Source: Promicromonospora sp. AC04 (GTDB lineage Bacteria; Actinomycetota; Actinomycetes; Actinomycetales; Cellulomonadaceae). Taken from it: 64,000 nucleotides of DNA. A model generated the notes under the pieces. The model saw nothing but the letters and a program-made list of their open reading frames with translations, was not told where the DNA came from and did no database searches. Shown in pieces: positions 31,691 to 63,886 of the stretch. Where the stretch lies: NCBI RefSeq assembly GCF_003058225.1, contig NZ_QBUG01000009.1:62001-126000 (forward strand). The letters are read 5' to 3'. Numbering within the stretch: position 1 is the first letter of the stretch; every line of letters begins with the position of its first letter. The position numbers and the translations under genes are program-made.

Positions 31691-31762
31691 TGGGGTATGG
31701 TGTAATTGGCAGCACGAGTGATTCTGGTTCACTTAGTCTAGGTTCGAGTCCTGGTACCCCAG
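31691..31762 (+). tRNA. tRNA-Gln (anticodon CUG)
   Basis: A 72-base cloverleaf: acceptor stem TGGGGTA/TACCCCA, anticodon stem AGTGA/TCACT around the loop TTCTGGT (anticodon CTG), and a T arm with GGTTCGAGTCC. The 3' CCA is not encoded. The ten bases before it can pair with its 5' acceptor strand (CATACCCC with GGGGTATG). Confidence 0.95.
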
Positions 31763-31853
31763 CGCAGAACGCAGCGCACCCAAAGTCGACGCGAGTCGGC
31801 CGCCTGGTGCGCTACGGTTTTCACCGGCAACCGGTCCGTAACCGGTAGTTCAG

Positions 31854-31926
31854 GCCCCCATCGTCTAGCGGCCTAGGACGCCGCCCTCTCACGGCGGTAA
31901 CGCGGGTTCAAATCCCGCTGGGGGTA
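31854..31926 (+). tRNA. tRNA-Glu (anticodon CUC), copy 1
   Basis: A 73-base cloverleaf: acceptor GCCCCCA/TGGGGGT with a terminal G-U pair, anticodon stem CCGCC/GGCGG around CTCTCAC (anticodon CTC), T arm GCGGGTTCAAATCCCGC. CCA not encoded. Confidence 0.97.
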
Positions 31927-31962
31927 CGCAGTCCACCGGCTCCGGCCGGAGGATTCGTTCAG

Positions 31963-32035
31963 GCCCCCATCGTCTAGCGGCCTAGGACGCCGCCCTCTCA
32001 CGGCGGTAACGCGGGTTCAAATCCCGCTGGGGGTA
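31963..32035 (+). tRNA. tRNA-Glu (anticodon CUC), copy 2
   Basis: Identical over its full 73 bases to copy 1, 36 bases downstream; the preceding TTCAG is duplicated too, suggesting a recent tandem duplication. Confidence 0.97.
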
Positions 32036-32042
32036 CAGCAGA

Positions 32043-44488: not shown

Positions 44489-45802
44489 ATGGGAATGACC
44501 AGGAGCGATACGACGACCAGGCAGCGTCGCGAGGCGTGGGGGAGCCTGCGGAAGCTGCCCTCGAAGCGCTGGCAGGCTCGCTACACGGGACCGGACGACA
44601 AGACCTACTCGGCGCGGACCGAGGACGACAAGCCGCTGACGTTCCTCACCAAGGGCGACGCTCGCGAGTGGCTCAACGGGGTGCACGCGGCCATCAGCCG
44701 AGGGGAGTGGCTCCCGCCCGACGAGGCTGTCCGACGGCGTCGGGCAGCCGCTGAGGCCGCAGCCGCGCGGGACGTGACCTTCCGTGAGTACGCCGAGCGG
44801 TGGCTGGAGCGCATCGCGACCGAGCCCGGCAAGGGCGGCAAGCTCCGCCGGCCGGGGACCGTGATCGCGTACCGAGGGCGGGTGCGCAACTACCTCATGG
44901 CGCCGCTCGGGGACGTGAAGGTCCGGGAGATCGACACCGAGCGGGTGCGTGCGCTCGTGATCAAGCTCGTCGCCATGCCTTCGGTACTCAAAGAGGACGC
45001 CAAGCACAACGGGATCGCGGGCGACGCCGTCGACGTGCTGAAGATGATCCTCCGGGCGGCGGTGCGTGACGGGCTGCTCGCGAAGATGCCGGACGTGCCG
45101 ACGCCGACCCGCAAGTCGGTGCGGCACGACGACGCCCACACCCCCGAGGACGACGTCGCTACGCCGACTCAGGTCGACGCGCTCTACGAGGCCGTGCCGC
45201 AGCCCTGGCGGATCGCCGTGCTGTTCGCGGCGTGGTGCCAGCTCCGGCGCGGGGAGGTGCTCGGTCTGCAGCGGCACGACATCGTCTGGAACGGCGACCG
45301 GACCGCGGCGACGCTGTATGTGCGGCGGCAGAAGAACGGGAGCACGGGCAAGCTCACGGATCCGAAGTCGGACAGCGGCCTCCGGTCGATGTCTGTCCCG
45401 CCGCTCATGATCGAGCGACTGCGCGAGCACCTCGACCAGCACGTGGGGCGAGCACGGACGGCGCCGGTGGTGCCGGGTGAAGCGCGGGGTAACCAGTACC
45501 TGTCGGCGTCGCGGTGGAACGGCATCTGGGCGGCCGCTCGGGGCACGGTCGCGAGACTTCCGAACGGCTACCGGTTCCACGACCTGAGGCACACGGGGCT
45601 GACCCGGATTGCGCAGGAGGGAGCGACCCTGGCCGAGCTCATGCGTCGTGGCGGGCATGCCGACGTGAGTGTGGTGCTGCGGTACCAGAAGGCGACGATG
45701 GCACGGGACATCGAGCTCGCCGCGCGGATGAGTGTGACTGCGGGGGAGGAGATCCGGCTGGAGAAGGAACGCATGAACACACCGGAGGGCGACGCTGCCT
45801 GA
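44489..45802 (+). CDS. Tyrosine-type site-specific integrase
   Basis: A 437-residue phage/ICE-type integrase. An AP2-like N-terminal arm-binding region (WGSLRKLPSKRWQARYTGPD) and SAM-like core-binding domain (FREYAERWLERIA) precede the catalytic domain, with the first Arg in WCQLRRGEVLGLQ, HDLRHTGLT, GGHADVSVVLRYQ giving the remaining His/Arg and nucleophile Tyr. AGGAGG lies just before the ATG. It begins 185 bases after lpd and faces a convergent excisionase-like gene, marking one end of an integrated element. No attachment repeat was found by eye. Confidence 0.94.
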   Translation: MGMTRSDTTTRQRREAWGSLRKLPSKRWQARYTGPDDKTYSARTEDDKPLTFLTKGDAREWLNGVHAAISRGEWLPPDEAVRRRRAAAEAAAARDVTFREYAERWLERIATEPGKGGKLRRPGTVIAYRGRVRNYLMAPLGDVKVREIDTERVRALVIKLVAMPSVLKEDAKHNGIAGDAVDVLKMILRAAVRDGLLAKMPDVPTPTRKSVRHDDAHTPEDDVATPTQVDALYEAVPQPWRIAVLFAAWCQLRRGEVLGLQRHDIVWNGDRTAATLYVRRQKNGSTGKLTDPKSDSGLRSMSVPPLMIERLREHLDQHVGRARTAPVVPGEARGNQYLSASRWNGIWAAARGTVARLPNGYRFHDLRHTGLTRIAQEGATLAELMRRGGHADVSVVLRYQKATMARDIELAARMSVTAGEEIRLEKERMNTPEGDAA

Positions 45803-56657: not shown

Positions 56658-58442
56658 TCACATCCTCTGGGGTGCCCGGATGCCGAGAAGGTCCAGGCCG
56701 GTGGCGAGGGTCTGGCCGGTGAGGTCGCACAGAGCGAGCCGGTTGGCGCGCACGGCGTCGTCGTCCGCCTTCATGACGGGGCACGCGTCGTAGAACCTGG
56801 TGAACGCGGTTGCCACGTCGTAGAGGTACCCACATAGCCGGTGCGGTTCGAGGGCTAGTGCGACGTCGCGCAGAGTGGCGTCGAAGGCGTCGAGGATGAG
56901 CGCTAGGGCCTTCTCGGTGGGGTGCGCCGGCAGCGTGATGTCCACCGGCATGACGTTGGCCGCGGCCGACCCGGCAGCCATCGGCTCAAGCTGTGCTGGT
57001 GCTGCGGCGGATGCCTTGCGGAGGATAGAGCGGACTCGGGCGTGCGCGTACTGCAGGTAGACGCCGGTGTTGCCGGTCGTGGCGACCATCTGGTCCACGT
57101 CAAACACGTAGTCCTTAGTGCGGGTGTTTGACAGGTCGGCGTACTTGATCGCGGCCATCCCGGCGGCGTGCACGACGGCGTCGAGCTCGGCGTCGGCGAA
57201 GTCGTGCTCCTTCGCCTCGAGGACGGCGCGGATGGCGGCCTCGGCGTCGTCGAGCAGGTCGGCCAGCCGCACCGTCTTACCGGAGCGGGTCTTGAACGGC
57301 CGCCCGTCGGTGCCGAGCACTGTGCCGAACGGGACGTGTTCTGCCTGGACGGTGTCGGGCAGCCAGCCTGCGCGGCGGGCGATGTCGAAGACCATGCGGA
57401 AGTGCAGTGCCTGCCAGACGTCGACGACGTAGAGGATGCGGTCGGCCTTGTAGTGGTCCACCCGCAACCGGAGCGTGGCCAGGTCGGTGGCCGCGTAGCC
57501 GAAGCCGCCGTCCTTCTTGCGCACGATCAACGGCACGGGGTCGCCATCGGGGCCGGTGACGCCGTCGGTGAAGGCGACCACGGCGCCGTCGGACTCGGTG
57601 GCGATTCCGGTGCGGAGCAGGTGGTCGACCACGTCGGACAGGGCGTCGTTGTAGCGGGACTCGCCGTCGAAGTCTCCGCCGTCCAGCAGGATCCCGAGCC
57701 GGTCGTAGATGACTTCGAATGCCTTCTCCGACTCGGCGACCAGGTCCCGCCACATGCTCAAGGTCGCGTCGTCACCGGACTGCAGGGCCACGACGCGGGC
57801 CCTGGAGCGGTCCGCGAACGCCGGATCGGCCTCGAACTCGGCCCGGGCAGTCTTGTACAGGCCGTCCAGAGCAGACATCGTCTCGGCGCCTCGGCCCTTC
57901 CAGGACACTTGCGGGTGCTCGTCGAGGTACTGGATGAGCATGCCGAACTGGGTGCCCCAGTCCCCGATGTGGTTCTGCCGGGTCACGTCCGCGCCCAGAT
58001 GGCTCAGCACCCGCACGAGCGCGTCGCCGATCACGGACGAGCGCAGGTGACCGACGTGCATCTCCTTGGCCACGTTGGGCGCCGAGTAGTCGACCACTAC
58101 CCGCTCACCCGAGCGGGGCGTAGTCAGGCCGAGCCGGTCATCGGCGAGCCGTGCCGAGACGGCCGACCACACCAGTTCGTCGGGGACGGTGATGTTCAGG
58201 AATCCCGGACCCGAGACCTCGGCGGTGAGTCCGGTCAGGCGTCCGGCGACGTCGGCCCCGATGTCACGCGGGGAGCGTGCGGCCTTCTTGGCGACGGCGA
58301 GCGTGCCGTTGGCCTGGAAGTCGGCGCGGTCGGATCGTCGGACCACCGGGTCGGTGCCGGCCAGCTCGGCCGGGAGCACCTGGGACAGGGCGGCCTGTAC
58401 GGCTGCCTCCACCTGGTCCTTGATCGCCACGACGTCAGACAC
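56658..58442 (-). CDS. argS: Arginyl-tRNA synthetase, probably an accessory copy
   Basis: A complete 594-residue class I ArgRS: N-terminal additional domain, HIGH-equivalent EMHVGHLRSSVIGDALVRVL at residues 128-147, GDWGTQFGMLIQYL, KMSKS-region PFKTRSGKTVRLADLL, and the C-terminal anticodon-binding domain. GTG 58442 follows GGAAGG. It is the last gene of a minus-strand group (decarboxylase, methyltransferase, nucleotidyltransferase, argS), 91 bases after the nucleotidyltransferase. This is not the usual argS context, so a second copy giving Arg-tRNA to a pathway, or a self-resistance copy, is inferred. Confidence 0.93.
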   Translation of the reverse strand: MSDVVAIKDQVEAAVQAALSQVLPAELAGTDPVVRRSDRADFQANGTLAVAKKAARSPRDIGADVAGRLTGLTAEVSGPGFLNITVPDELVWSAVSARLADDRLGLTTPRSGERVVVDYSAPNVAKEMHVGHLRSSVIGDALVRVLSHLGADVTRQNHIGDWGTQFGMLIQYLDEHPQVSWKGRGAETMSALDGLYKTARAEFEADPAFADRSRARVVALQSGDDATLSMWRDLVAESEKAFEVIYDRLGILLDGGDFDGESRYNDALSDVVDHLLRTGIATESDGAVVAFTDGVTGPDGDPVPLIVRKKDGGFGYAATDLATLRLRVDHYKADRILYVVDVWQALHFRMVFDIARRAGWLPDTVQAEHVPFGTVLGTDGRPFKTRSGKTVRLADLLDDAEAAIRAVLEAKEHDFADAELDAVVHAAGMAAIKYADLSNTRTKDYVFDVDQMVATTGNTGVYLQYAHARVRSILRKASAAAPAQLEPMAAGSAAANVMPVDITLPAHPTEKALALILDAFDATLRDVALALEPHRLCGYLYDVATAFTRFYDACPVMKADDDAVRANRLALCDLTGQTLATGLDLLGIRAPQRM

Positions 58443-58533
58443 GCGTGAACCTTCCAATCGGGGTTGTGTGAGGCCCCGACCTGGAATGGGTGGGGCGACG
58501 GCAAGTCTAGGGAACATGTGCAGCTTCACCTGT

Positions 58534-59298
58534 TCACAGCGGCATGGCACGGGCACGCCAACGAGCTGAGACGGTCAGGATCACGCTGCGCCGTGCGCGG
58601 TCGTTCTGCCGCCAGAGTGTGCCGTTCGAGGGAGCAGCAACGCCGTCGGAGACGAGGTCGGGCAGTGCCATCGCGATGGTGCCGTACAGGTGCGGCGCGT
58701 CCGCGTTGACGTAGCCGAGCCAGTCCTCGCCGGTTGCTCCCGTTGCCGGGTCACGCACGAGGCGCTCGACGATGTCCGCCGCGGTGAACGCACCCAGGCC
58801 GTCGACGAGGTCGAGGCCGAGGAGACACAGGGCGCGGACAGCCTCGAATCGCCACCCCTCGTAGGCAACGGCGTCGCCGGTCAGGAACGTGTGGGGGCTG
58901 GTAAAGGCGTTCAGGATCAGGCGGGCCTTGAACACCGCGGAGTTGAGGTAGCCCGGGTCGGGTGTCACGGGCGTGACGGTGAGGGCGCCGTCCACGGTCG
59001 GAGCAAAGCCTCGTAGTCCGAAGGCGTCGGTGAGTTCGCCACTGGTGACGCAGAGCTTTGCCGGGTAGGCGACCTCGTGGTCGAGTTCGAGGCCGTGCGC
59101 CGTGTGGAGGCGCTCGACATCGGTGACGAGCCGGTCCACGATCCCCGGCGCCGGATCGGCCTGCCAGGCGAAGAGCAGATCGAGGTCCGACGAGGACCTC
59201 GCTCGTCCTCGGGCATGCGATCCATAGGCGATCGCGAACAGGCCGCCCCTGGTTTGTTGGATGTTTGCTGCCGCCGCCAGGGCCTGCACCGTGGTCAC
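58534..59298 (-). CDS. Nucleotidyltransferase-domain protein
   Basis: A 254-residue protein with the polymerase-beta-like signature AIAYGSHARGRARSSSDLDL near residues 22-41, containing GS and the paired Asp residues for metal and NTP. The C-terminal part is helical. It resembles aminoglycoside- or MNT-type nucleotidyltransferases. No HEPN partner is adjacent, so it is probably a small-molecule or tRNA-modifying enzyme rather than an antitoxin. ATG overlaps the methyltransferase stop (ATGA). Confidence 0.82.
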   Translation of the reverse strand: MTTVQALAAAANIQQTRGGLFAIAYGSHARGRARSSSDLDLLFAWQADPAPGIVDRLVTDVERLHTAHGLELDHEVAYPAKLCVTSGELTDAFGLRGFAPTVDGALTVTPVTPDPGYLNSAVFKARLILNAFTSPHTFLTGDAVAYEGWRFEAVRALCLLGLDLVDGLGAFTAADIVERLVRDPATGATGEDWLGYVNADAPHLYGTIAMALPDLVSDGVAAPSNGTLWRQNDRARRSVILTVSARWRARAMPL

Positions 59299-60221
59299 GA
59301 CGTCGCCTTGCTGTCGGAGGGGAGGTGGCGGGTGCGTGGCCCGCGCCAGAAGTCGATGACGTGCACACCAGTGGGTAGGAGGACGCGCCCGGCGTCGGTG
59401 GTGTGCGTCTGTACGAAGTCCTCGATCTCAGCACGTACCTCCGGGTCGGCGACCAGGACCGGCATGGACTTCATGTGCACGACGGTGAACCAGTCGACCG
59501 CGGCGGCGGGGCTGTCGGCCAGTGAGATACCGCCGATGCGGCTGTGCGAGAGGCGACCGAGTCCGTCGTCCTCTGCCGCACGTAGCGCCGCGAGCAGCGT
59601 TTCGCGAGCAAAGCCGCGGCCTGTGCCGGGGAACGGCGCGATGCGCTCCCAGGCGCGCGTGACCAGTTGCTGCTCTGGCGCGTCACTGTCGAAGAACAGG
59701 GCCAGCAGATGCCCGCCATCCTCGACGAGGTCCACGATCTCGCGTACGAGCTGGTGTGCTTCCTCGACACCGGCGTCCAGGTCGGGGCGAATTCGGATGC
59801 CCTGAGAAGTGAGGGTCTCGAAGCAATCCCCGATGGGGTACGACAGCGACCAGAACGCGCCGACGAGGTCGTACTTCTCACCAGCAGTGTGCAGGGCATG
59901 GACAGCGGTGGTGATGTCGGTGTGGGTCGCGGTTGCCTGCGGGTACCGCGCCGTGAACTTGTTGATCATGGGCGCACCGGAGTCGATCCCGTGGAGTGCA
60001 GCGGCGTACGGGGCGATCGCTTCGGTGACACGGCCGGTACCGCAGCCGAGCTCAAGCATGCGCAGCGTGGCGGACTCCGGTACGGGTCCGTGCTGGTCAC
60101 GCATGATCCGTCGGACGAGGTCGACGTCCTCGACACCGTCGAACCAGTGCGAGAGCAGGACTCGGTCATAGACGTCGGGGGCGTGGTAGACGGCACGGAA
60201 CGGGAGTGTGGTTTCAGGCAT
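59295..60221 (-). CDS. SAM-dependent methyltransferase
   Basis: A 308-residue class I methyltransferase. Motif I is LRMLELGCGTGRVTEAIAPY near residues 53-72, followed by the acidic LHGIDSGAPMI; the later region has VGAFWSLSYPIGDCFETL. The C-terminal 60 residues are an extra segment ending in a charged tail. It starts two bases after the decarboxylase stop and is coupled to the nucleotidyltransferase, so all are one operon. Substrate unknown. Confidence 0.85.
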   Translation of the reverse strand: MPETTLPFRAVYHAPDVYDRVLLSHWFDGVEDVDLVRRIMRDQHGPVPESATLRMLELGCGTGRVTEAIAPYAAALHGIDSGAPMINKFTARYPQATATHTDITTAVHALHTAGEKYDLVGAFWSLSYPIGDCFETLTSQGIRIRPDLDAGVEEAHQLVREIVDLVEDGGHLLALFFDSDAPEQQLVTRAWERIAPFPGTGRGFARETLLAALRAAEDDGLGRLSHSRIGGISLADSPAAAVDWFTVVHMKSMPVLVADPEVRAEIEDFVQTHTTDAGRVLLPTGVHVIDFWRGPRTRHLPSDSKATS

Positions 60222-60223
60222 GA

Positions 60224-61780
60224 TCAGCGCTCCTTCGTGAAGTTGGGGTCGGCGACGACCTGACGGCCCAGGCTCTCGACGAAGTCCAGAACCCCAACGA
60301 CGTGTCGACGTTCGATGCGCCGGTTGATGCTCATGAAGCGCAGCGGCCGAAGCAGCCGCCCGCGTTCGAACCGCCCGGGATCGGGGATGGTGAACTGGTG
60401 CAGGTGCCAGCTGCCGTCCGCCAGGAGGCGTTTGTGGATCTCCGTGTTGACCGCGTTGATCCGCTCGATGTCGGGCATGGTGTGGTCCTCATCCGGCGGT
60501 ATCCACAGGAATGCCTGCGCGGTCAGGTCTGGGTCATGGAGCCGGACAAACGCGGGCCGGGCGTCCAGTTCCGCGACGAAGCCGCGCATGACCGCCATCC
60601 GTCGATCCATGATCGCTGCGAGCCCCGCGCGTCCATGGGCACGCATCATCATCCAGAGCTTGAGCGACGACCATGGCTTGGAGCCGACGAAGGGCGTGAC
60701 CTGACCGAAGGCGAAGTCCTCCTGCATGATCAGGTCGGAGTGGCTGCTGATCGCCCGCAGCGCTCCGACCTCTCGGGTGAGGACTGCGCTGACCGCGTAT
60801 GGAACGGCCATGACCTTGTGCGGGTCCACGGTGATGCTGTCGTACAGCTCGATGCCATCGACCAGATGCTTGGTCGCAGGGCTGAACGTCGCGGCGAATC
60901 CCCAGCAGGCGTCGGCATGCAGCCAGATTGACGGGTCGGCAGAGCGCACGGCGTCATGCACTGCGTGTAAGTCCTCGACCGTGTGAGCGCGGGAGTCGCC
61001 CGCGTAGGCGACTACCGCCATGATCCGTCCCTGGTGTGCTTCCAAGGCGCGGCGGAGCGCATCCAGGTCGTATCGAAAGCCGTCGGTGTCGACCTCGATC
61101 ACGGCGCTGCCGCACCCGATCCAGGCAAGCGAGGATCGAACACTGTAGTGCCCGATCCCACGCGGCACGACGACGGCAAGTTTGGACGGGTCCGTGATCC
61201 CGGTCTGCATCGATCCCGGGATCTTGTTCTCCCGAGCAAGCATCATCGCGATCGTGTTGCTCATCGTCCCGCCCGTGGTCACGACGCCACCCGCCTGCCA
61301 GACCGACGTCACGTCCGAGACTGCCGGGTTTGCAAGACCCAGCAGATCGCGCGTCCAGCGCAGGACGGCGATCTCAGCGAACGTCGCGCTGGGCGAGTCG
61401 AAGCTCTGGTTGATCAAGTTCTGCTGCGTGAACATCGACAGCAGGCCGCCAGCCAACGAGGCAGGGTCATCGCCGGTGTCGCCGAAACCGAGGAACTGCG
61501 GGCTCGCCTCGTTCTTGCACAGCGGCAAGAGCTTGGCCTTGAACTCCTCGATCAGTTCTGGAAGGGCGGTGCCGGTCTCAGGAAACTCGTCGAGAACACG
61601 GTCACGGATCGCTTCGGGAGCCAAACGCTCACCGTAAATCTGCTCCCGTCCCTTGAACTCCATCCCGGTGTCGATGACGGATCGCAGAAGGCTTCGGACT
61701 TGGTCATCCCTGGTCACCGCGGGTGCCGGCTGATAGCTGCCTATCGGGTGGATCTCTTCACGTTCTGGAGCGAGCGTCAT
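60224..61780 (-). CDS. PLP-dependent group II amino-acid decarboxylase-like protein
   Basis: A 518-residue fold-type I PLP enzyme. The PLP lysine is K322 in DSITVDPHKVMAVPYAVSAV; the cofactor-stacking region is TTGGTMSNTIAMMLARENK; the Asp/Ala site before it is WLHADACWGFAATFS. Relatives decarboxylate Glu, Tyr, Trp or diaminobutyrate. The substrate cannot be read from the sequence. ATG 61780 has GGAGG upstream. It is the first gene of the operon with methyltransferase, nucleotidyltransferase and argS, divergent from the HTH regulator. Confidence 0.9.
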   Translation of the reverse strand: MTLAPEREEIHPIGSYQPAPAVTRDDQVRSLLRSVIDTGMEFKGREQIYGERLAPEAIRDRVLDEFPETGTALPELIEEFKAKLLPLCKNEASPQFLGFGDTGDDPASLAGGLLSMFTQQNLINQSFDSPSATFAEIAVLRWTRDLLGLANPAVSDVTSVWQAGGVVTTGGTMSNTIAMMLARENKIPGSMQTGITDPSKLAVVVPRGIGHYSVRSSLAWIGCGSAVIEVDTDGFRYDLDALRRALEAHQGRIMAVVAYAGDSRAHTVEDLHAVHDAVRSADPSIWLHADACWGFAATFSPATKHLVDGIELYDSITVDPHKVMAVPYAVSAVLTREVGALRAISSHSDLIMQEDFAFGQVTPFVGSKPWSSLKLWMMMRAHGRAGLAAIMDRRMAVMRGFVAELDARPAFVRLHDPDLTAQAFLWIPPDEDHTMPDIERINAVNTEIHKRLLADGSWHLHQFTIPDPGRFERGRLLRPLRFMSINRRIERRHVVGVLDFVESLGRQVVADPNFTKER

Positions 61781-61946
61781 GGCTGGTTCCTCCGTCATCG
61801 GATCCGACGTTTCCGGTGGATTCGATTCAAGCCGCGCGTGCCTCGCGCTCCCACGGCGTACTTGTCGCAAAGATGTGGCATCTCCGTGGCGCCGTGCGCT
61901 CGGGACATGCATCACACTGATTTGCTGGCGCACCAGGGGGCTGTCC
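61781..61946. promoter_or_regulatory. Divergent promoter region, decarboxylase operon/HTH regulator
   Basis: A 166-base gap carrying both promoters. GGAGG serves the decarboxylase and AGGGGG serves the regulator GTG. It should hold the regulator's operator, but I see no convincing long dyad. Confidence 0.5.
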
Positions 61947-63491
61947 GTGACCGACCGTCGCAATGAGCTCGCTCGACGCCGGAAGGTCGCGGGCTACTCG
62001 CAGGAGCGCCTTGCGGAGGCGCTCGGAGTCGACCGAACTACGATCGCTCGTTGGGAGTCTGGCGCGTCGCAACCTCAACCAGTGCTGCGGTTGCAGCTCG
62101 CCTCTCGCCTTGAGATGACTCCCACGGAACTTGACCGCCTGCTCGACAGCGAGACTGTCCCGCTGGCCGAGGCGCCAGGGACAGGCCGGCCGAGTGCCGC
62201 GGAACGTCGCACGATGTCGCCCGGGATGCACGCTGCGCTCGGTTGGGTCGACGATGTCGCTGGTCTCGCTTCCGGCGAGGCAAGACGAAGAGTCGAGGCG
62301 CTGTCCCAAGGCAGCGACCGTCGGCCAAACGCCTTGCCGCAGGTCGTTCGGGCCGACGTTGGTCGAAGCGAGATCGTGGCTGCCCTGGGGAGTTACTACG
62401 ACTTCCGCGATGGATGGCAGGCGTACTCGGCGCGGACGGAACTTGGCACGCTGACGACGAGCATCGTGACTCGACCGGACTGGCTTGACCTTGCCCTACC
62501 AATCGGGAAAGACCTGGATGGCCTTCGGCTCGACACCGCACCGGTTCCAAGGCCGACGCTCGGCGTCGCCGAACTAGACGCGGCGCTCCGGCGGGTAGCA
62601 GAGGTCGAGCGTTTCGGAACGACGCTGGTCAACCGTGACCTGTACCGCCTCGTCGAACTGAAGATCGGCCGCGGCGGAATGACCGGGCGCCTCGCACTGA
62701 CGGACTTCGTTCACTACGCCCTCACACTGGACCTGCTCGAAAACGAACTGATCGACGCCGTCGCGAGGAAGCCTCGGCCCGTGCGCGGCGACCTACCGTT
62801 GCGTGACCGGTACCTCCCGGACCTGTCAGCGGTTCTGGATGTTGGCGCTCGGCTGTGTGCTGGTGGCGCGCTTGCGTTGACCGCGATCGCTCGCCCGCGA
62901 ACATGGAGACACGAAGGTGACTACCTGCTGTTGATCCAGGCGCGGTCGAATCAGGTACTGAACGGCAGCAGACGACTCTCAGTGATACCCAAGGGTTTCC
63001 ACGGCCCACTCGTCGACATCGCCGACGACGCGCCGATCGGAGCGACCCTCGCACGAGAGATGGAAGAGGAGCTGTTCGGCCGGACCGAGGTCGACTCCAC
63101 GATCGGAGAGTCCAGGCAGGCAGATCCCATGCACCTCAGCCGGCTCTCAGAACCCATGGCGTGGCTGATGGAGCGGACCGACGAGCAGGTCTGGCGCATG
63201 GAGTGCACCGGATTCGGCTATAACCTCCTGACCGGAAACTACGAGTTCGCCAGCCTGGTCGTCATCGACGACGAGGAGTGGTGGACCCGTTTCGGCGGAC
63301 AGATCGAGGCCAACTGGGAGTCCAACAACTTACGCCGCTACTCCAGTCGCGACCGCATCCTTCTGGATACACTCGCGCACGACCCTGCCTGGAGCACCGA
63401 AGGACTGTTTGCCCTGCTCCAAGGCTTCCGACGTCTCACTGAGATCGGAGAAGGGCGCGTCGATCTGCCCGCCGTCGAATGGGGAATCTGA
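61947..63491 (+). CDS. XRE-type HTH regulator with degenerate Nudix-like segment
   Basis: A 514-residue protein. The N-terminal XRE HTH is ELARRRKVAGYSQERLAEAL then GVDRTTIARWESGASQPQPV (residues 5-45). After a middle helical region, residues about 330-385 (GDYLLLIQARSNQVLNGSRR to LAREMEEELFGR) resemble a Nudix domain with an imperfect REMEEELF box. A sensor of nucleotide-type ligand is possible. GTG 61947 has AGGGGG seven bases upstream. Coupled to the cupin gene and divergent from the decarboxylase operon. Confidence 0.78.
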   Translation: MTDRRNELARRRKVAGYSQERLAEALGVDRTTIARWESGASQPQPVLRLQLASRLEMTPTELDRLLDSETVPLAEAPGTGRPSAAERRTMSPGMHAALGWVDDVAGLASGEARRRVEALSQGSDRRPNALPQVVRADVGRSEIVAALGSYYDFRDGWQAYSARTELGTLTTSIVTRPDWLDLALPIGKDLDGLRLDTAPVPRPTLGVAELDAALRRVAEVERFGTTLVNRDLYRLVELKIGRGGMTGRLALTDFVHYALTLDLLENELIDAVARKPRPVRGDLPLRDRYLPDLSAVLDVGARLCAGGALALTAIARPRTWRHEGDYLLLIQARSNQVLNGSRRLSVIPKGFHGPLVDIADDAPIGATLAREMEEELFGRTEVDSTIGESRQADPMHLSRLSEPMAWLMERTDEQVWRMECTGFGYNLLTGNYEFASLVVIDDEEWWTRFGGQIEANWESNNLRRYSSRDRILLDTLAHDPAWSTEGLFALLQGFRRLTEIGEGRVDLPAVEWGI

Positions 63492-63886
63492 TGTCAACGT
63501 GGTACAGCGGCAACGCCACTGACGACGCGGATCAGCACCGTGGTTGGCTCCTGGGCAACTTCATCTCCCCGGAGACTCCCGGGGCAGCTGTCCGCAACTC
63601 TGACGCACTCGAGGTGAAGTGGGGCATCCATCCGGCCGGCCAGCAACGACCCGAGTGGACTGCTGACGATCAGCGCACCACGATGCTCCTGCTCGTCAAC
63701 GGCCGGTTCCGCCTCGATCTGACCGTCAGCAGCACTGTCCTTGCGCGGCAGGGAGACTACGTTGTCTGGGGCCCCGGAATCGATCACTCCTGGCAGGCCG
63801 AGGCTGACTCCGTGGTCGTCACGATCCGGTGGCCATCCGTGAGGGAGCAGCAAGCGCCGCAAGGGCGGCCTGTGGTGAACGCATAG
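63491..63886 (+). CDS. Cupin-fold small protein
   Basis: A 131-residue protein with cupin pattern: GFR-type sheet TTMLLLVNGRFRLDLTVS, ARQGDYVVWGPGIDHSWQAE (motif 1 and its His) and SVVVTIRWPS. Related short cupins are sometimes labelled signal peptidase-like. The start ATG shares one base with the preceding stop (TGATG), so it is translated with the HTH regulator, perhaps as its ligand-binding partner. Confidence 0.75.
   Translation: MSTWYSGNATDDADQHRGWLLGNFISPETPGAAVRNSDALEVKWGIHPAGQQRPEWTADDQRTTMLLLVNGRFRLDLTVSSTVLARQGDYVVWGPGIDHSWQAEADSVVVTIRWPSVREQQAPQGRPVVNA

What the first reader, a model, noticed from the sequence alone, without database searches (positions are those of the whole stretch)
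56658..63886. Divergent locus pairing a decarboxylase, methyltransferase, nucleotidyltransferase and full ArgRS with an HTH/Nudix-like regulator and cupin
Seen: four minus-strand genes with a 2-base gap, a 4-base overlap and a 91-base gap, facing two coupled plus-strand genes. A complete ArgRS (HIGH and KMSKS-type sites intact) in such a group is unusual. Known: accessory aminoacyl-tRNA synthetases can be resistance copies or can feed aminoacyl-tRNA to natural-product pathways, as seryl-tRNA does in valanimycin synthesis. Inference: the locus makes or modifies an amine or arginine-derived compound, or protects tRNA-Arg/ArgRS from one. It lies in an accessory region with an integrase and an IS scar.
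Basis: partly seen in the sequence, partly recalled or inferred. Interest (0 to 1): 0.75.

Follow-up and report, generated by a model that had tools for sequence, protein, structure and literature searches.

The report
Decarboxylase operon carrying spare aminoacyl-tRNA synthetase
A conserved bacterial gene set that probably makes a small nitrogen-containing molecule carries its own spare copy of a protein-synthesis enzyme, a spare arginine enzyme here and a spare methionine enzyme in gut bacteria, which suggests that the unknown product poisons such enzymes and the spare copy protects its maker.

Summary
(1) A decarboxylase–methyltransferase–nucleotidyltransferase–ArgRS operon: the full set stands in 26 of 32 actinomycete loci found by the decarboxylase. 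(2) A regulator–cupin-like pair, strongly matched in 3 other genomes of 394 searched, without the operon. This genome has a second ArgRS, 25% identical to the operon one. The decarboxylase–nucleotidyltransferase core also occurs in 14 Firmicutes MAG loci. Ten of these carry, in place of ArgRS, a MetRS of another subtype (best NCBI model PRK00133, type-2-like) than the housekeeping MetRS (PRK12267 in 5 of 5 scanned). MetRS2 is reported to be insensitive to MetRS1 inhibitors. Eight of the 14 also carry a RelA/SpoT homologue that keeps its HD domain but has Gln for the synthetase Glu in 8 of 8 copies showing the motif. Best reading: a small-molecule locus whose product inhibits an aminoacyl-tRNA synthetase, with an insensitive synthetase built in (confidence 0.5). 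Product, inhibition and resistance are untested. Against it: the same ArgRS type is a common second ArgRS in actinomycetes without the locus. Detoxification of an outside compound is the main rival.

The parts
60224..61780 (-). Group II PLP-dependent amino acid decarboxylase, 518 aa; first gene of the operon
   Evidence: Pfam PF00282 147 bits; K322 (PLP lysine) and H211 invariant in 39 aligned rows; start shared with L060
59295..60221 (-). Class I SAM-dependent methyltransferase, 308 aa
58534..59298 (-). Pol-beta-type nucleotidyltransferase with a C-terminal helical part, 254 aa
56658..58442 (-). Complete second arginyl-tRNA synthetase, 594 aa ('594-type'), after a 91-base gap
   Evidence: TIGR00456 445.5 bits, cut-off 261.65; 25% identical to the genome's 553-aa ArgRS
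61781..61946 (.). Divergent intergenic region between decarboxylase and regulator
   Evidence: sequence; no promoter scan made
61947..63491 (+). Xre-type HTH regulator with a large C-terminal domain of unknown fold ('Nudix-like' not confirmed); start inferred
   Evidence: Pfam HTH_3; profile match, probability 97.8, to regulators upstream of the operon in 3 Nocardia loci
63479..63886 (+). Small cupin-like protein overlapping the regulator's end (start 63479 or 63491)
   Evidence: no profile match; follows the regulator in 3 of 3 other genomes with a strong regulator match

Best explanation
The four-gene operon is one lineage of a scattered small-molecule locus with a decarboxylase-nucleotidyltransferase core. 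Proposed working: the decarboxylase turns an amino acid (perhaps one with a cationic side chain) into an amine; the nucleotidyltransferase attaches a nucleotide, and the methyltransferase methylates it. The resulting nucleotide-like amine inhibits an aminoacyl-tRNA synthetase. The locus ArgRS, of a different subtype from the housekeeping ArgRS, is insensitive and keeps tRNA-Arg charged in the producer. In the Firmicutes loci the same logic uses a type-2-like MetRS, often with a RelA/SpoT homologue that can probably only hydrolyse (p)ppGpp and would cancel the false starvation signal. The regulator-cupin pair is a separate module that may control the operon. Shown: gene content, conservation, subtype difference, replacement of the RelA/SpoT synthetase glutamate. 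Inferred: every biochemical step, the inhibition and the resistance.
For: Full four-gene set in 26 of 32 actinomycete loci, 24 of 32 in the same order and strand. Nucleotidyltransferase and methyltransferase found only in decarboxylase carriers: the same 4 of 246 genomes. Core shared with 14 of 14 Firmicutes loci at 39-43% decarboxylase identity. 10 of those 14 carry a MetRS of one cluster; all 10 fit PRK00133 best, at 495-534 bits, below that model's cut-off of 587. 8 of these 10 genomes have a second full MetRS; 5 of the 8 were scanned and all fit PRK12267, over its cut-off. Locus and housekeeping MetRS are 25-31% identical (80 pairs). A full-length PRK00133-type match above 500 bits occurs in 2 of 60 genomes of the class of L119's genome, one being that genome itself. 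MetRS2 is insensitive to MetRS1 inhibitors (passages). RelA/SpoT homologues near 8 of 14 cores: HD domain over cut-off in 6 of 6 full-length copies, EVQIRT glutamate replaced by Gln in 8 of 8 copies that show the motif. Biosynthesis-like neighbours: PAPS-type sulfate-activation genes and a sulfotransferase (L128), HisC-like aminotransferase plus MFS transporter (L105; a Streptomyces plasmid), AMP-binding enzymes (L126, L127), radical SAM (L129). Of 23 other genomes with a locus ArgRS that could be searched, 21 have a second complete ArgRS. Two Streptomyces hosts without a locus ArgRS, typed by alignment, have a 594-type ArgRS; Streptacidiphilus, also without, has both types elsewhere. In G088 (Frankia group) the decarboxylase and nucleotidyltransferase are transposase-interrupted, yet the locus ArgRS is intact and is the only full-length one found.
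Against: No product, inhibition or resistance is shown. The 594-type ArgRS is frequent without the locus: 92 of 296 class genomes have it at E<=1e-100, and 14 of 17 stand-alone carriers outside group f26 also have a second full ArgRS. On the ArgRS tree locus and stand-alone copies interleave (8 label changes, at least 6 forced, though fewer than in 500 of 500 shuffles), so no single resistant clade is seen. The Streptomyces pattern is confounded with ancestry. 4 of 14 Firmicutes loci show no MetRS, 3 of them ending near a contig edge, 1 (L120) not; 2 of 10 genomes with a locus MetRS show no second one (draft genomes). One core family beside two different synthetases needs different final compounds or targets. 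That PRK00133 equals type 2 and PRK12267 type 1 is my inference. Fold matches of the nucleotidyltransferase are weak (Foldseek E >= 2.4e-3), and RNA methyltransferases appear within 3 Z units of the methyltransferase's best rows.
Confidence: 0.5

Rival explanations
1. Detoxification island: the host does not make the compound. Decarboxylase, nucleotidyltransferase, methyltransferase (or a phosphotransferase in Streptomyces) inactivate an outside amino acid analogue, and the spare synthetase is the insensitive target.
For: Nucleotidyl-, phospho- and methyltransferases are typical inactivating enzymes (recalled); nucleotidyltransferase fold near AadA; a gene annotated phosphotransferase follows the core on a Streptomyces plasmid; scattered distribution, 4 plasmid records with the decarboxylase.
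Against: Sulfate-activation genes plus sulfotransferase, HisC-like aminotransferase plus transporter, AMP-binding and radical SAM genes beside the core look biosynthetic. Each of these is seen in only some loci.
Confidence: 0.2
2. Aminoacyl-tRNA supply: the locus ArgRS (or MetRS) provides Arg-tRNA (or Met-tRNA) as a substrate of the pathway, as seryl-tRNA in valanimycin synthesis.
For: Synthetase beside a decarboxylase recalls valanimycin (recalled; only a reference-list entry on seryl-tRNA was seen). Conserved adjacency.
Against: No aminoacyl-tRNA-using transferase recognised among the genes scanned (not every neighbour scanned). Six loci do without a locus synthetase. The RelA/SpoT homologue and the two-subtype MetRS pattern are not explained.
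Confidence: 0.12
3. tRNA- or protein-directed system (toxin, defence or modification): the nucleotidyltransferase acts on tRNA or protein, and the spare synthetase repairs or bypasses the effect.
Against: MntA model score 24.5 against cut-off 60 and no HEPN match among the six genes. The best fold rows of the methyltransferase are small-molecule enzymes. A conserved decarboxylase is unexpected in such a system.
Confidence: 0.1
4. Hitchhiking: ArgRS is an ordinary spare copy that travels with an unrelated metabolic operon.
For: The same ArgRS type is widespread as a stand-alone gene; interleaved tree.
Against: ArgRS present in 26 of 32 actinomycete loci of several families; a different synthetase, of a subtype rare in its class (2 of 60), in 10 of 14 Firmicutes loci.
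Confidence: 0.08

Closest known systems
Type-1/type-2 methionyl-tRNA synthetase pairs in Gram-positive bacteria (drug-insensitive MetRS2)
   Same: Two MetRS of different subtype in one genome, in 8 Firmicutes carriers; MetRS2 reported insensitive to MetRS1 inhibitors (passages)
   Different: Here the second MetRS sits in a conserved decarboxylase-nucleotidyltransferase locus; no inhibitor is known; the match of NCBI models to types 1 and 2 is inferred
Antibiotic clusters with a resistant synthetase copy (mupirocin IleRS2, indolmycin TrpRS, albomycin SerRS; recalled)
   Same: A divergent subtype of a synthetase next to small-molecule genes
   Different: None with ArgRS or MetRS in this role was seen in the listings (20 of 384, 20 of 428, 12 of 92 papers shown); two searches gave 0 papers
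Small alarmone hydrolases that give self-resistance to toxic alarmone synthetases (abstract start of PMC9765508 seen)
   Same: A (p)ppGpp-removing protein in a self-protection role
   Different: Here a longer RelA/SpoT homologue with HD, degenerate synthetase and TGS domains beside a MetRS; no toxic synthetase was looked for
Valanimycin locus (SerRS, decarboxylase; recalled)
   Same: A synthetase gene and a PLP decarboxylase together
   Different: No seryl-transferase-like or N-oxygenase gene recognised among the six genes
Diaminobutyrate, cysteine-sulfinate and glutamate decarboxylases (group II)
   Same: Sequence family and PLP lysine
   Different: Far below the cut-offs of the named NCBI models (105 of 606 bits PanP, 103 of 900 diaminobutyrate decarboxylase); Asp at 101 (37 of 39 rows) aligns with an Asp of 8zpi (titled diaminobutyrate enzyme) but not with CSAD or GAD

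Membership tests
Arginyl-tRNA synthetase (TIGR00456) | Whole-protein score over the curated cut-off, all three domains | tested here: met
   445.5 bits vs 261.65; N, catalytic and DALR domains
Arginyl-tRNA synthetase (TIGR00456) | Charges tRNA-Arg | not testable with these tools
   Indirect only: the sole full-length ArgRS found in G088 is the locus one
Group II PLP amino acid decarboxylase (PF00282) | Domain match and PLP lysine | tested here: met
   147 bits; K322 and H211 invariant in 39 rows
Group II PLP amino acid decarboxylase (PF00282) | Substrate | not testable with these tools
   No equivalog model over its cut-off; Asp101 is a hint only
Type VII toxin-antitoxin MntA | Score over the MntA cut-off and a HEPN partner | tested here: not met
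   24.5 bits vs 60; no HEPN match among the six genes
Tam41-type cytidylyltransferase | Fold over the whole protein | tested here: inconclusive
Biosynthetic cluster with resistant-target synthetase | Extra synthetase of another subtype beside pathway genes | tested here: met
   25% identity to the housekeeping ArgRS; locus conserved
Biosynthetic cluster with resistant-target synthetase | Product inhibits the housekeeping synthetase and spares the extra one | not testable with these tools
   needs enzymes and extract
Valanimycin-type aminoacyl-tRNA-dependent pathway | Aminoacyl-tRNA-using transferase in the locus | tested here: inconclusive
   none recognised in the Pfam scans of chosen genes; not every neighbour was scanned
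Nudix proteins (regulator) | NUDIX profile match | tested here: inconclusive
   no match at E<=10 in 5 members; REMEEELFG resembles but does not fit the recalled Nudix box

The most novel reading that the evidence does not exclude
A cross-phylum family of unrecognised antimetabolite pathways, built on a decarboxylase-nucleotidyltransferase core, in which the aminoacyl-tRNA synthetase gene names the target: ArgRS in actinomycetes, MetRS in Firmicutes, the latter often with a (p)ppGpp-hydrolase-only protein that silences the producer's own starvation alarm.
Probability: 0.35. Interest if true: 0.88.

Novelty: new variant of a known kind. Interest (0 to 1): 0.72.

Why it matters
I know of no natural product that targets ArgRS or bacterial MetRS (recalled; none was seen in the listings, and searches gave no paper). 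If the reading holds, the synthetase gene predicts the target of an unseen compound family in actinomycetes and in Firmicutes known mostly from metagenomes. It would also show a second layer of self-protection, a RelA/SpoT homologue reduced to (p)ppGpp hydrolysis inside the locus; one search for that in print (10 of 14 papers listed) showed alarmone hydrolases only as protection against toxic alarmone synthetases. The idea is directly testable with two purified enzymes and one heterologous expression strain.

Tried and rejected
Six-gene unit: rejected. In L034-L036 the regulator-cupin pair stands without the operon, and in L060-L063 the operon stands without the pair (stretches of 12.9 to 19.9 kb).

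'A second argS in itself means resistance': rejected as an argument, since two full ArgRS are common without the locus.

Nucleotidyltransferase-ArgRS run-on frame in L102: rejected as meaningful; against its relatives it is a 1-base difference in one isolate, judged by eye.

A single resistant ArgRS clade: not found. MntA/HEPN toxin-antitoxin: rejected on score and missing partner. Tam41 membership: left open. Nudix in the regulator: no profile match.

Rows dropped; 73 of the 76 other genomes with a match had short or partial hits (nearly all HTH only) and were not followed; 17 genomes with decarboxylase matches at 39% identity or less were not counted as orthologues; 30 loci of the matches listed were given. 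(38 rows): L063, L096, L102, L121, L126, L134, L135 left out. (22 rows): L061, L063, L096, L102, L134 left out. (39 rows): L063, L096, L098, L105, L107, L119, L121, L134 left out. L096 and L062 (G251) are one genome, counted once in the 32 loci; L063 counts although two of its genes are interrupted, and L134 although its decarboxylase is a fragment. L097 and L100 were not held and so not searched; there G432's second ArgRS is in pieces and was not counted. Housekeeping ArgRS was typed by alignment only in G000, G059, G415, G418, G424, G430 and, in pieces, G432; the second ArgRS was told by score, not aligned.

Paper searches: listings with abstract starts read; 0 papers. Passages read by term: PMC12945691, PMC7916415, PMC8165550. 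No paper was read whole.
Full report
Observation. The six genes are present with open frames. The minus-strand genes run decarboxylase (60224-61780), methyltransferase (59295-60221), nucleotidyltransferase (58534-59298), ArgRS (56658-58442), with a 2-base gap, a 4-base overlap and a 91-base gap, and purine-rich stretches before the four starts. The plus-strand genes are an Xre-type regulator and a small cupin-like protein. ArgRS scores 445.5 bits against TIGR00456 (cut-off 261.65) and has all three domains. The genome holds another ArgRS at C2 (553 aa); the two are 25% identical.

Two modules. Among 394 class genomes the regulator has strong homologues in three others. All three have the cupin-like gene next to it, and none shows an operon gene in the stretch read. 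The decarboxylase has strong homologues in four others. All four carry methyltransferase, nucleotidyltransferase and ArgRS in the same order, without the regulator-cupin pair in the stretch read. In 246 class genomes the nucleotidyltransferase and methyltransferase families each occur in four genomes, the same four, all decarboxylase carriers. Regulators related to this one at profile level (probability 97.8, E 8e-13) stand directly upstream of the operon in three Nocardia loci (L108, L113, L117), so a regulatory link is plausible.

Wider survey. A scan of one genome per species with the decarboxylase alignment gave 42 loci, 28 actinomycete and 14 Firmicutes. ArgRS stands with the core in 22 of the 28. 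Adding G059, G102, G088 and the window gives 26 of 32, recounted without the window as 25 of 31. In 24 of the 32 the order and strand are the same; in L115 the ArgRS lies upstream and in L118 on the other strand. The six without ArgRS are five Streptomyces and one Streptacidiphilus: four have decarboxylase and nucleotidyltransferase, two (L103, L105) the decarboxylase without it. Of 4 plasmid records with the decarboxylase, three were opened: one shows decarboxylase, HisC-like aminotransferase and MFS transporter, one decarboxylase, nucleotidyltransferase and phosphotransferase, one carries no annotation there.

Firmicutes. All 14 loci have a nucleotidyltransferase next to or near the decarboxylase. 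Ten have a MetRS of one cluster nearby; of the other four, L121, L124 and L131 end near a contig edge and L120 does not. Further clusters: a RelA/SpoT homologue in 8 of 14, a HisC-like aminotransferase in 8, a nucleotide-pyrophosphatase-like protein in 5, a MiaB-like radical SAM protein in 3 (families). L128 has sulfate-activation genes and a sulfotransferase immediately upstream. Eight of 14 genomes have two full MetRS; of the ten with a locus MetRS, eight. Locus and housekeeping MetRS are 25-31% identical in 80 pairs, while the groups are 52-83% and 55-85% identical within. All ten locus MetRS fit PRK00133 best, below that model's cut-off; the five housekeeping MetRS scanned of eight fit PRK12267 over its cut-off. 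In 60 genomes of the class of L119's genome a full-length PRK00133-type match above 500 bits occurs in two, one of them L119's own.

Why resistance. [quoted passage not shown] If PRK00133 stands for type 2 and PRK12267 for type 1 (my inference), the Firmicutes loci place a known insensitive subtype in a host with the sensitive one. The RelA/SpoT homologue has HD, synthetase-region and TGS domains in all six full-length copies scanned, but the glutamate of the synthetase motif is glutamine in all eight copies that show the motif, out of ten ORFs of the cluster. That this abolishes synthesis is recalled, not tested. A protein that only removes (p)ppGpp makes sense where uncharged tRNA would otherwise raise a false alarm. 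The actinomycete loci mirror this with ArgRS: 21 of 23 other genomes with a locus ArgRS have a second complete ArgRS, of the 553-type where I aligned it (G000, G059, G430). Of the hosts that lack a locus ArgRS, two Streptomyces have a 594-type ArgRS (G415, G424) and Streptacidiphilus (G418) has both types elsewhere. This is confounded with ancestry.

The ArgRS is a working type. In G088 (same genus group as Frankia tisae, L096) two identical DDE transposase genes split the decarboxylase and the nucleotidyltransferase, a third ArgRS-like gene is also split, and the locus ArgRS is the only one over the TIGR00456 cut-off.

Results against the reading. The 594-type ArgRS is frequent without the locus: 92 of 296 class genomes at E<=1e-100, and 14 of 17 stand-alone carriers outside group f26 have a second full ArgRS too. 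The ArgRS tree mixes locus and stand-alone copies, though the label is more clustered than in any of 500 shuffles. No chemistry is known. A detoxification island explains much of the same evidence.

Verdict. Not an oddity of one genome but a conserved locus family, with a repeated pairing of a small-molecule core with an alternative-subtype synthetase. The self-protection reading is the best single explanation at about even odds.

Noticed in passing
L063 (G088, Frankia group): Two identical 396-aa DDE transposase genes interrupt the decarboxylase and the nucleotidyltransferase; ArgRS and methyltransferase are intact.
   Followed up: partly
L136 (G088): A third, very divergent ArgRS-like gene in two parts about 2 kb apart.
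   Followed up: partly
L128 6184-9952: PAPS-reductase-family gene, fused GTPase/APS kinase and sulfotransferase directly upstream of the decarboxylase in a Bacilli MAG.
   Followed up: partly
L119, L126, L128, L129, L130, L133: RelA/SpoT homologues of 478-495 aa with HD and TGS domains but Gln in place of the synthetase glutamate.
   Followed up: partly
L120 9122-9949: Zeta-toxin-family kinase gene directly upstream of the decarboxylase in a Clostridia MAG.
   Followed up: no
L108, L113, L117: Regulator followed by an HTH-less paralogue directly upstream of the operon in Nocardia.
   Followed up: partly
L036 7703-11570: Two convergent copies of the HTH regulator with the cupin-like gene between them.
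   Followed up: no
L063, L094, L095, L101, L102, L107, L109, L134: One cluster of genes beside the decarboxylase; the member scanned (L094) matches cytidine/dCMP deaminase.
   Followed up: partly
L112 13860-16949: Large nSTAND1/caspase-like/solute-binding protein near the core in a Streptomyces locus.
   Followed up: no
window 45161-45700: Tyrosine recombinase domain (41 bits), about 11 kb from the operon.
   Followed up: no
L037 10995-15426 (at and beyond the window end): Response regulator, cytochrome P450, small protein, ferredoxin-reductase-like and short-chain dehydrogenase genes in a row.
   Followed up: no
window 31691-32036: Three tRNA genes in a row: Gln(ctg), Glu(ctc), Glu(ctc).
   Followed up: no
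G415, G417, G423, G424, G426; G111, G198, G017, G173: Partial ArgRS-like matches (anticodon part, often N-terminal part; perhaps the NrtL model seen) in genomes with a single full ArgRS.
   Followed up: no
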